This document shows positions 58,882-61,741 of a stretch of 64,000 nt of DNA, one piece after another. Both the position numbers and the translations under genes were made by a program. The notes beneath the pieces were generated by a model, which had not been told where the DNA came from, did not search any database, and saw only the letters and a list, made by a program, of their open reading frames with translations. Each line of letters begins with the position of its first letter. The first letter of the stretch is position 1. The stretch lies in assembly GCF_004214795.1 (NCBI RefSeq), contig NZ_CP035928.1, forward strand, positions 558,001 through 622,000, read 5' to 3'. Source of the DNA: Malaciobacter pacificus (GTDB taxonomy: Bacteria; Campylobacterota; Campylobacteria; Campylobacterales; Arcobacteraceae).

Positions 58882-59168
58882 AATTTAGTTTTATTAATAA
58901 ATAGTTTTTTTTAGTTATTATTGCACAAAGAAAAAGCCTTTTTATAAAGGATAACTTAAAGAGGAAGTAGTTTTAAAAATAGACAATAATTTATTAACAA
59001 TATATTTTAAAAGAACATAGCAAGTATTTTTACTTGCTAATGTTTGATTTTTGAAGTACTTGTTTTTTGCAATTATCTAGAATTTTGCAGAAGTATTTCC
59101 ATAATCAAACAAATATGTTTGGTTAACAATTTAGTATGAAGATAGCTTTATTGTATTGCTATCATAAT
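58882..59168. other. Non-coding region between dinB and the IS110 end
   Basis: A/T-rich, no gene. Hairpins: 59019-59038 (8-bp perfect stem AGCAAGTA/TACTTGCT, loop TTTT), CAAAC/GTTTG at 59106-59121, and GATAGC/GCTATC at 59141-59163. Some may belong to the IS right end or end dinB transcription; the element boundary cannot be placed exactly. Confidence 0.4.
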
Positions 59169-59217
59169 GATTTAAGTACTAACTTGTGATCTTTTACAAT
59201 TTACTGTTTATGACTTT
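59169..59217 (+). repeat. IS110 terminal inverted repeat, transposase 3' side
   Basis: Matches the reverse complement of 60643-60691 at 41 of 49 positions. It covers the last codons and stop of the transposase gene. Confidence 0.75.
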
Positions 59218-60437
59218 GCAAATACACGAGCAGGATCATAAGGTGTGTTATACTTAAATATAGAGTAGATAATTGTTGCAAGTTTCCTTGAAACAGCGAT
59301 TAGTCCCTCTTGTTTAGATTTGCCTTGTGACCTTTTGGTATCATAGTATTGCTTGAGTTCTTTGTTGTGTATCATACAACTAACACTTGCTAAATATAAT
59401 GCATGCTTAGCTAAAGAAGAACCTCTTTTAGAAAGCTTTCCAGTTGATTTAGAATTACCAGAACTATTTTCTGTAGGAAATAATCCTAAATAACCAATAA
59501 ATTTAGTAGGTTTAGAGAATCTTGATAAGTCACCACATTCACTAATAATTGCAGCAATAGTTTTAGAAGAAACTCCAGGAATTGTTTTTAAGTTCTCAAT
59601 TAAAGAGTTAGTTGGAACATCTTCTTCTTTACTAATACCTTGTTTGTCTAAAAGAGCTAGTATCTCATCTTCTAAGATGGATAACTCTTCTTGGTACATT
59701 TTAAGTAATCTAATAGAGCTTTTAATTGCAATAGCTCTTGCATCTTTGGCTTTACCAGAATATATTGAAGATTTAGCTAGTTCTAAAACCTTTAAAGCTT
59801 TTTCATTATTAAAATTATTACCTTGAATATGACGAAATATCTTCATAATTCTGTCAACACTACTGTGTTTATAGTGGTGAGATGTTGGATACTTATCTAA
59901 AAGAGCTAAACCACAGATACTAAAAATATCTAAAAAGTTTTCAAGCTCTGGAAAGGTAACAGTTACTTGAGTTAAAATTCTCTTTTTAACCTCTTTCATA
60001 TCAGATTGAATAGAAGCTCTATTTCTATAAAGAGTTCGTAAAGATTGATATTCATCATCTGTAACATAACCTGAACTAAACTTGCCATCTTTTAAAAATA
60101 AAGCTATGATCCAAGAATCTATATTATCATTTTTAACTTTTTTCATTGTGTGTTGTTCTCTATATCTTGTTGTCTGAAATGGATTTAATAGTTTAACATT
60201 AAACCCATGAGAGTTTAAAAATTCCCAAAGGTTTTCACCATAGATTCCAGTTGCTTCAAGACCAATAATAAAATCATTTGTATTTAATGATAGTTTTTCA
60301 AGTTTAGTAATAAACTTTTTAAATCCATTAATACAGTTTGTGATCCTTAAGGGCTTTGTAGTAACTTTTACTTCATCTTCATCAATGATAGTAACAACAT
60401 GAAAGTTTTTAGCAATATCAATTCCAACATAATACAT
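59208..60437 (-). CDS. IS110-family transposase
   Basis: 409 aa, DEDD type. The N-terminal RuvC-like domain: YVGIDIAKNFHVV (first Asp), GLEATGIYGENLW (Glu) and NDNIDSWIIALF (Asp residues). A long coiled helix connects to the C-terminal Tnp20 domain: LKTIPGVSSKTIAAIISE, FIGYLGLFPTENSSG and KLSKRGSSLAKHALY with the catalytic serine region. Length normal, no frameshift, so probably functional. Established knowledge: these recombinases use an element-encoded bridge (seeker) RNA to choose target and donor. AGCGAGGTATAAATT precedes the ATG. Confidence 0.93.
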   Translation of the reverse strand: MYYVGIDIAKNFHVVTIIDEDEVKVTTKPLRITNCINGFKKFITKLEKLSLNTNDFIIGLEATGIYGENLWEFLNSHGFNVKLLNPFQTTRYREQHTMKKVKNDNIDSWIIALFLKDGKFSSGYVTDDEYQSLRTLYRNRASIQSDMKEVKKRILTQVTVTFPELENFLDIFSICGLALLDKYPTSHHYKHSSVDRIMKIFRHIQGNNFNNEKALKVLELAKSSIYSGKAKDARAIAIKSSIRLLKMYQEELSILEDEILALLDKQGISKEEDVPTNSLIENLKTIPGVSSKTIAAIISECGDLSRFSKPTKFIGYLGLFPTENSSGNSKSTGKLSKRGSSLAKHALYLASVSCMIHNKELKQYYDTKRSQGKSKQEGLIAVSRKLATIIYSIFKYNTPYDPARVFAKS

Positions 60438-60443
60438 AATTTA

Positions 60444-60642
60444 TACCTCGCTTATAATAATCTTTAGTTGCCTAGCCTAAGCTAGATTCACAGCCTCGTT
60501 AATCTATATGTAGTAGATGCTATACAGCTATCTCTACAGCTTTTAATAAATGATTAACAACTAAAGATATCAACAGGCTTAAATATTGTAGTTTGTTAGA
60601 TAAATCTTCCATTGCTACAAGGAGAAAAATGTTGTTATATCT
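60444..60642 (-). ncRNA. Candidate bridge RNA of the IS110 element
   Basis: Non-coding stretch upstream of the transposase on the reverse strand. An 11-bp perfect inverted repeat (60460-60470 with 60558-60568) encloses about 87 nt holding smaller stems: CTAGCctaaGCTAG at 60472-60485, and GTAGATGC/GCATCTAC-like pairs near 60510-60535. Structured RNA between the left end and the transposase start is where IS110-group bridge RNAs are found. No direct evidence of transcription. Confidence 0.5.
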
Positions 60643-60691
60643 AAAGTCATAGACTGTAAAAAGTAAAAGATTTGAAGTTAGTACTTCAATC
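60643..60691 (-). repeat. IS110 terminal inverted repeat, transposase 5' side
   Basis: Partner of 59169-59217 (41 of 49). It lies 69 bp before the pldA start. Confidence 0.75.
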
Positions 60692-60760
60692 TTAGAAGAA
60701 TATATTTTTTAGCTAAAAATCTAAGTTATATATTCTTAATTTATTATACGAGGAGTTTAA

Positions 60761-61741
60761 ATGAAAAAGTTTTCTATTTTACTATTTATTGTTTTTTCAC
60801 TTAATGCACAAGAGTTTGATAAACTTTATAAAGAAGCTGAAAAATTAGAACTTCAAGGAAAATATAAAGAAGCAAATAAAATTTACAAAGAGATTATAAA
60901 AAAAGAGAAAACTATAAATAGTATTTATATAGATGAAGATAAAAAAAGTGAAATAACAGCTATGAAAGATACAATAGATGAGGTAGATGATAAAGAAACA
61001 AATGAAACTATCGCTCAAATTATAGCTTCAAAATTTGATATTTATCCCCACCATGAAAACTATTTTTTCCCAATTTCTTATGATACAAATAAAAGATCAG
61101 ATGGTAGAGATAGTTTAGAAACTAAATTTCAATTAAGTATTAAAAAGCCAATAATCCATGATTTTTTTGGTTTTGATGAAACTATAAATTTTGGTTACAC
61201 TCAAACTTCATGGTGGCAATTATATAAAGATTCTTCTCCTTTTAGGGAAACAAATTATAAGCCAGAAATATTTGTAACAATACCTTATGGGAAGAAAGAT
61301 AAGACATCATTAAAAGCATTTACTTTTGGTTTTTTACATGAATCAAATGGACAAGCAGAACCAAAGTCTAGGTCATGGAATAGAATATATTTAGAGAGTT
61401 ATTTCCAAGTTGGAAATCTATTTGCAGTTCCAAGAGTATGGTATAGAATACCAGAAGAGGAAAAAGATGATGATAATCCAGATATTGAAGATTATATGGG
61501 TTATGGAGATTTTACTTTAATTTATCCCTATAAAAAACATACTTTTAAAGCTTTGTTTAGAAATAATCTAAAATTTGATGAAGATAATAAAGGTTTTGTT
61601 CAATTTGATTGGACATTTCCATTTTTCAATTCAAAAAATACATTTGGCTATCTTCAATTATCAAGTGGATATGGGGATAGTTTAATTGATTATGATAAAG
61701 AGATAAATAGAATAAATTTTGGTATCTCTCTTTCTAGATAA
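60761..61741 (+). CDS. pldA: Outer-membrane phospholipase A
   Basis: 326 aa. A signal peptide (ends LNAQ) and a TPR-like helical segment (20-90, KLYKEAEKLELQGKYKEA) come before the beta-barrel. Barrel motifs: YTQTSWWQLYKDSSPFRETN, catalytic HESNGQ (His-Ser), SRSWNRIY and SGYGDSLIDYD with the Ca(2+)-site region. It hydrolyses phospholipids in the outer leaflet under stress. The TPR-like N-terminal extension is not in classic PldA. GAGGAG lies before the start. Confidence 0.92.
   Translation: MKKFSILLFIVFSLNAQEFDKLYKEAEKLELQGKYKEANKIYKEIIKKEKTINSIYIDEDKKSEITAMKDTIDEVDDKETNETIAQIIASKFDIYPHHENYFFPISYDTNKRSDGRDSLETKFQLSIKKPIIHDFFGFDETINFGYTQTSWWQLYKDSSPFRETNYKPEIFVTIPYGKKDKTSLKAFTFGFLHESNGQAEPKSRSWNRIYLESYFQVGNLFAVPRVWYRIPEEEKDDDNPDIEDYMGYGDFTLIYPYKKHTFKALFRNNLKFDEDNKGFVQFDWTFPFFNSKNTFGYLQLSSGYGDSLIDYDKEINRINFGISLSR

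What the first reader, a model, noticed from the sequence alone, without database searches (positions are those of the whole stretch)
60438..60760. Possible bridge RNA in the IS110 left end
An 11-bp long-range inverted repeat encloses nested stems upstream of an intact IS110 transposase. This is where bridge RNAs that program target choice are encoded. It would be a bridge system from a low-GC Campylobacterota background.
Basis: partly seen in the sequence, partly recalled or inferred. Interest (0 to 1): 0.6.

Follow-up and report, generated by a model that had tools for sequence, protein, structure and literature searches.

The report
Jumping gene guided to ribosome-binding sites
A small mobile DNA element in this bacterium appears to carry its own guide RNA, and the guide imitates the tail of ribosomal RNA, so the element inserts next to the start codons of genes.

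Summary
The 11-bp repeat (60460-60470/60558-60568) is the outer helix of the donor-binding loop; the target-binding loop lies just upstream (60571-60634). By length alone the repeat is borderline (59 of 1000 shuffles reach 11 bp); conservation, covariation and donor matches make the case. Fourteen identical copies in a relative (G015) and empty sites in G027 fix the ends: 58935-60750, core CT, no target duplication. The unexpected part is the target: the left target guide UUUUUCUCCU is an anti-Shine-Dalgarno sequence, and 38 of 42 distinct junctions sit in a ribosome-binding site with ATG 10-12 nt away; the window copy sits at AGGAG of a phospholipase A gene. One natural guide base (C/U) tracks the target base (P = 0.004, chosen post hoc). 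A second IS110 in the same genome does the same (6 of 6). Insertion at translation starts is published for IS900; the guide explanation was not found in my searches. Also seen: complementarity between the bridge RNA 5' part and the sequence after the transposase stop, kept in 15 of 15 relatives with unrelated sequences.

The parts
58935..60750 (-). whole IS110 element, 1816 bp, one CT core counted at the right end
   Evidence: ends from 14 identical copies in G015 and empty sites in G027; window ends read by the same motifs
59208..60437 (-). IS110 transposase, 409 aa, D7 E61 D104 D107 and S326-G327 at the positions of the IS621 catalytic residues
60438..60750 (-). left end, 313 nt, holds the bridge RNA
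60743..60748 (-). TATAAT, -10-like box 2 nt inside the left end; at the joined ends it would face the bridge RNA
   Evidence: sequence; inferred promoter, no clear -35
60696..60737 (-). 5' stem-loop of the bridge RNA
60667..60693 (-). second 5' hairpin, conserved in near relatives
60643..60691 (-). left arm of the long LE/RE complementarity
60571..60634 (-). target-binding loop, closed by CAACA/TGTTG
60620..60629 (-). left target guide UUUUUCUCCU (ends in core CU), anti-Shine-Dalgarno
60578..60585 (-). right target guide UAUUUAAG (ends in core complement AG); weak match to observed targets
60538..60549 (-). left donor guide UUAUUAAAAGCU
60509..60538 (-). inner hairpin of the donor loop, with compensatory changes
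60495..60504 (-). right donor guide GAUUAACGAG, complementary to core plus left end
58935..59207 (-). right end, 273 nt, with several hairpins
58935..58948 (-). left donor half-site TTTATAAAAAGGCT at the right end
59169..59217 (-). right arm of the long LE/RE complementarity, from the last codons of the transposase into its 3' flank
60751..60755 (+). target: Shine-Dalgarno AGGAG of the phospholipase A gene; core AG at 60751-60752
60761..61741 (+). target gene, phospholipase A1 family (PF02253), start codon 10 nt from the core
58920..58934 (-). right target half-site (flank beyond the right end)

Best explanation
This is an IS110-family insertion sequence whose left end encodes a bridge RNA of roughly 270-290 nt. 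The donor loop pairs with the joined ends of the excised circle. The target loop presents UUUUUCUCCU, an imitation of the anti-Shine-Dalgarno tail of 16S rRNA, and so directs insertion into ribosome-binding sites, antisense to the gene, at the AG of AGGAG. The SD and start codon stay whole while the upstream leader is displaced by about 1.8 kb. Shown: the anatomy, exact ends without duplication, the SD location of insertions, donor-guide matches that change together with the ends, and covarying helices. Inferred: that the RNA is made, binds the transposase and works by pairing. The long arm after the transposase stop, complementary to the bridge RNA 5' part, is most likely a brake: a full-length transcript folds the arm back onto the bridge RNA, so that only shorter RNAs form an active guide (inference, perhaps even odds).
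For: Multi-copy ends; 10 of 13 orthologous sites in G027 align across the joined flanks, core present once. SD location: 39 of 43 junction rows, 38 of 42 distinct; G015 background sites that score as well on a motif without the ATG: 65 SD, 85 intergenic, 266 coding of 416, against 13 of 14 insertions at SD. Left guide: 10 of 14 G015 insertions match 7 or more of 9 guide positions, against 2,796 of 46,474 background AG sites. Guide base C/U against target base C or not: 4/0 and 3/16, P = 0.004; all 36 sites 6/1 and 4/25, P = 0.0007. RDG matches the reverse complement of core plus left end over 5-7 nt in 11 of 11 rows, including CT-to-TT core and CG-to-CC changes. Structure: 8 pairs with both-side changes, 0 of 500 shuffles as high. 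Arms: 15 of 15 elements; window score 60 against a shuffle maximum of 38.
Against: No transcript or binding data. The window's own target matches the left guide in only 7 of 10 bases and the right guide in core plus one. Guide matching alone does not explain the SD bias: equally matching sites are mostly coding, so selection against harmful insertions or an unrecognised recognition step must add to it. A site-by-site matrix of left targets against guides did not discriminate. The LDG matches of the window's own lineage are short (5 nt). A -35 box is not evident. The proximal donor-loop helix gave no signal over swaps (1274 of 20000).
Confidence: 0.87

Rival explanations
1. The left end is only a structured 5' leader that controls transposase translation; target choice is by the protein recognising SD-like DNA.
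For: The transposase starts 22 nt after the donor loop; the IS110-type ISPpu9 has a leader that hides its ribosome-binding site (PMC8450116, passages). The targets of all Campylobacterota relatives studied are alike, so a shared protein preference would look similar.
Against: Guides that match the element's own ends change in step with those ends; a guide base tracks the target base between closely related elements.
Confidence: 0.07
2. Insertions are random with respect to guide, and SD sites are simply the survivors because insertion elsewhere is harmful.
For: One of 14 G015 insertions (L038; no ATG in the empty site of G027 either) and one of 5 distinct G005 insertions (L031) are not at an SD, so other places can be hit.
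Against: The core and CCT are nearly fixed and left-guide matches far exceed background; even among non-coding sites that score as well, SD is only 65 of 150.
Confidence: 0.05
3. For the LE/RE complementarity: it acts in DNA, as an internal inverted repeat bound by the recombinase or as a remnant of an old inverted duplication, not as RNA.
For: It flanks the junction in the circle; IS1111-group elements have (shorter, subterminal) inverted repeats (PMC11208160 section 12).
Against: The arms lie far from the ends, and the left arm coincides with the bridge RNA 5' part and, in several elements, runs into the 5' strand of the target loop. Not decisive.
Confidence: 0.35

Closest known systems
IS621 bridge RNA system (IS110 group; PMC11208160, PMC11208158)
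   Same: bridge RNA in the left end upstream of the transposase, target loop before donor loop, CT core, no duplication, DEDD plus serine recombinase
   Different: longer RNA, target is the Shine-Dalgarno sequence instead of REP elements, right end 273 nt with an arm complementary to the bridge RNA
IS900 of Mycobacterium avium subsp. paratuberculosis (IS110 family)
   Same: published target motif CATGNNNNNNTCTCCTT (PMC8141618, passages) and a 1997 paper titled 'IS900 targets translation initiation signals...' (title seen in that reference list; paper not read)
   Different: the passages I read describe no guide RNA for IS900; its sequence was not compared here
seekRNA of IS1111/IS110 elements (PMC11187229, passages)
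   Same: a noncoding RNA with short stretches matching both strands of the target
   Different: the IS1111 type has the RNA downstream of tnp; here it is upstream
ISPpu9 Asr9/Ssr9 (PMC8450116, passages)
   Same: IS110-type element with mutually complementary RNAs encoded up- and downstream of tnp
   Different: there the upstream RNA is antisense to the leader and the downstream RNA is its partial complement; here the sense-strand sequence after the tnp stop is complementary to the bridge RNA itself

Membership tests
IS110 family | DEDD recombinase with Transposase_20 domain | tested here: met
   Pfam PF01548 and PF02371; IS621 hit 8wt6 E 3e-19; D7, E61, D104, D107, S326 aligned
IS110 family | no terminal inverted repeat at the extreme ends, no target duplication, shared core dinucleotide | tested here: met
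IS110-group bridge RNA | noncoding RNA in left end with target loop then donor loop | tested here: met
   by sequence and covariation only
IS110-group bridge RNA | donor guides match the joined ends | tested here: met
   RDG 11 of 11 rows over 5-7 nt, LDG common words 4-9 nt
IS110-group bridge RNA | target guides match the insertion site | tested here: met
   left guide; right guide weak; site-by-site matrix uninformative
IS110-group bridge RNA | RNA expressed and bound by the recombinase | not testable with these tools
   no RNA data
Any Rfam 15 family | match at gathering score | tested here: not met
   none in window; only a chance-level hit below threshold
IS1111 group | bridge/seek RNA downstream of tnp and 7-17-bp subterminal repeats | tested here: not met
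   RNA is upstream; the long internal arms are 230 nt or more from the right end
IS900-type target | insertion in the ribosome-binding site next to a start codon | tested here: met

The most novel reading that the evidence does not exclude
A cross-phylum group of IS110 elements (Campylobacterota and Bacillota here, plausibly IS900 in Actinomycetota) has kept its programmable guide as a mimic of the 16S rRNA anti-Shine-Dalgarno tail, giving a landing site in front of genes in any bacterium; the Campylobacterota branch adds a co-evolving antisense arm in the transposase 3' flank that switches the bridge RNA off.
Probability: 0.45. Interest if true: 0.78.

Novelty: new variant of a known kind. 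Interest (0 to 1): 0.62.

Why it matters
It offers a molecular reason, a guide that copies the anti-Shine-Dalgarno sequence, for the insertion of IS110-type elements at translation starts reported for IS900 since 1997. It shows a programmable guide held to one kind of target across elements whose transposases are down to about 46% identical, while other IS110 guides are known to vary. The co-evolving arms suggest an RNA control of a bridge system that could be tested with two compensatory mutations. It also gives a small, low-GC bridge system with 14 natural insertion sites, most with their empty counterparts.

Tried and rejected
Rfam gave no family. CAT next to the left target guide (ACATTTTTCTCCT) was considered as a direct copy of the start codon; rejected, because CA lies in the closing helix and the ATG of the targets lies 10-12 nt from the core, never at 9 as a rigid match would need. 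Matching each left target against each guide did not discriminate. RNAalifold on all 15 left ends aligned together gave almost no structure, so two subgroups were folded apart; the comparison of helices across groups used arms chosen by eye, which inflates own pairing. The LE/RE arm was sought and not found in 5 Bacillota elements or in 3 of the second IS110 type. Of 8 plasmid loci looked at, 5 have a clear CAT-spacer-CCT junction (L089 from Aliarcobacter; L091, L092, L094, L095 from Bacillota), L093 is weak, L090 and L096 do not show it; those left ends, except L089, are inferred from one copy each. Only 8 of 31 plasmid records with a hit were opened. A hed-like reverse ORF was not pursued. 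Literature: nine of ten searches used; 'bridge RNA' with 'Shine-Dalgarno' gave 4 unrelated papers, 'anti-Shine-Dalgarno' with 'insertion sequence' and 'guide RNA' none, 'IS110' with 'bridge recombinase' none; the library is open-access only and holds no preprints.

Full report
Observation. The stretch 60438-60760 lies between an intact IS110 transposase (59208-60437, minus) and a phospholipase A1 gene (60761-61741, plus). The 11-bp repeat is real. Alone it is borderline against shuffles (59 of 1000), but the left end folds far better than shuffles (z -4.2, 0 of 200).

Ends of the element. A protein search of 104 genomes of the family found the same element at 90% transposase identity in G015 (14 copies) and G010 (3 copies), and 47-50% relatives. 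The fourteen G015 copies are one identical sequence of 1834 bp. Their flanks show that the left end begins CGTATAAT directly after CT and the right end stops at AAAAAGGCT. G027, a close relative of G015 with no match at the threshold, holds 13 of the 14 sites; in 10 of the 13 the joined flanks align over all 300 nt (or all but 1-2) with the core once and no duplication. By the same motifs the window element is 58935-60750.

Bridge RNA anatomy. I used the published rules: the left target guide equals the top strand of the left target plus core; the right guide is complementary to core plus right target; likewise for the donor (PMC11208160 passages). The target loop is then 60571-60634, with guides UUUUUCUCCU and UAUUUAAG on either side of an inner stem, and the donor loop is 60460-60568, with guides UUAUUAAAAGCU and GAUUAACGAG. 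The consensus fold of six near relatives recovers both loops, with 8 pairs changed on both sides; none of 500 shuffles reaches this and all slid controls are lower. Four more distant relatives fold into an analogous target loop and donor hairpin with 7 such pairs; there the outer donor helix, by my reading, competes with the outer target helix for the same stretch. Across 15 elements the closing helix of the target loop, and across 12 the outer donor helix, have different but complementary arms (4 of 20000 permutations each, arms chosen by hand; the proximal donor helix showed no signal).

Donor guides. In 11 rows from four subgroups, the right donor guide ends in a 5-7 nt match to the reverse complement of core plus left end. 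It follows two natural changes: core CT to TT (guide CGAG to CGAA) and left end CG to CC (guide CGAG to GGAG). Left donor guides share words of 4-9 nt with the right end; for the window's lineage only 5 nt.

Target. The sequence outside the left end is the reverse complement of a Shine-Dalgarno sequence and start codon. Of 43 junction rows (42 distinct), 39 (38) have an ATG 10-12 nt from the core, opening a frame of 25 codons or more or running to the contig end. The four others: L038 (by my reading inside a gene, antisense), L031 (no start codon nearby), L045 (ATG at the place, short frame), L048 (contig end). Each of the 15 left ends examined (and L089) holds T[TC][TC]CCTT exactly once, in the target loop. 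The host 16S tail reads GGATCACCTCCTTTCAG, sharing CTCCTT with the window guide. In 400 kb of G015 (20 stretches of a 2.02-Mb genome), AG sites that match 8 of 9 guide positions are at an SD in 33 of 451 cases; all SD sites are 740 of 46,474 AG sites. A motif built from the 14 sites without the ATG passes 416 background sites at its lower quartile: 65 SD, 85 intergenic, 266 coding; the insertions are 13 at an SD and 1 not. So sequence gives part of the bias, and something else, most simply loss of harmful insertions, gives the rest. In the window's own lineage (8 elements, 23 sites), insertions by elements with guide C have C at that place in 4 of 4, and those with guide U have C in 3 of 19 (P = 0.004); all 36 sites: 6 of 7 and 4 of 29 (P = 0.0007). 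I picked this position after seeing the data.

Window copy. Left target TTAAACTCCT matches the guide in 7 of 10 positions; the best copy, L016 in G010, in 10 of 10. The insertion keeps AGGAG and ATG of the phospholipase gene and separates them from what lay upstream.

A second case. The same genome holds six copies of a 30%-identical IS110, all six at AGGA(G)-spacer-ATG, and five of seven relatives' loci show CAT-spacer-CTCCT before the same left-end motif (the other two had no recognisable left end). Its left end holds UCUCC directly followed by AAGGAG, a different arrangement that I did not resolve.

Complementary arms. 60643-60691 and 59169-59217 are 84% complementary. Between each element's left end and its own sequence after the transposase stop, such a match exists in 15 of 15 elements, in five sequence types that do not match each other; own and same-type scores are 31-71, cross-type scores 16-31 (the weakest own score, L057, is 31). 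For the window element the score is 60 against a maximum of 38 in 500 shuffles. The left arm is the bridge RNA 5' part and in several elements reaches into the 5' strand of the target loop. I think a full-length transcript folds on itself through these arms and cannot form the target loop, which would limit active guide; this is inference, and a role in DNA is not excluded. The arm was absent from 5 Bacillota and 3 second-type elements.

Known and new. IS900 inserts at CATGNNNNNNTCTCCTT (PMC8141618, passages), and a 1997 title in its reference list says that it targets translation initiation signals (that paper not read). Bridge RNAs in left ends are predicted for most IS110-group elements (PMC11208160 section 12). 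I found no paper that links a bridge RNA guide to the Shine-Dalgarno sequence, in an open-access library only. I therefore file this as a new variant of a known kind.

Noticed in passing
L047 (Sulfurimonas sp. KA11), about 180 nt before the transposase start: The right-end sequence of the second IS110 type sits at the left target guide of this element's bridge RNA: one SD-seeking element has apparently inserted into the SD-like guide of another, and the left end is gone.
   Followed up: partly
L056 (G438), left end: The left end is missing from the core to the target guide, with an SD-like target sequence fused to the guide, as if the element had recombined on its own guide.
   Followed up: no
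L105 (G042): A transposase-less derivative: left-end start joined to right-end-like hairpins, at a site that ends in CATATTATTTTC.
   Followed up: no
window 58935-59207: The right end carries several hairpins, one of them a terminator-like site on both strands at 59018-59039.
   Followed up: no
L029 and L090, right flanks: The flank after the right end begins CGTATATT, like the start of a left end, suggesting tandem or junction-targeted events.
   Followed up: no
LE and RE arms alignments: The two arms differ by a recurrent mismatch (ACAGT against ACTGT or ATTGT) in several sequence types.
   Followed up: no
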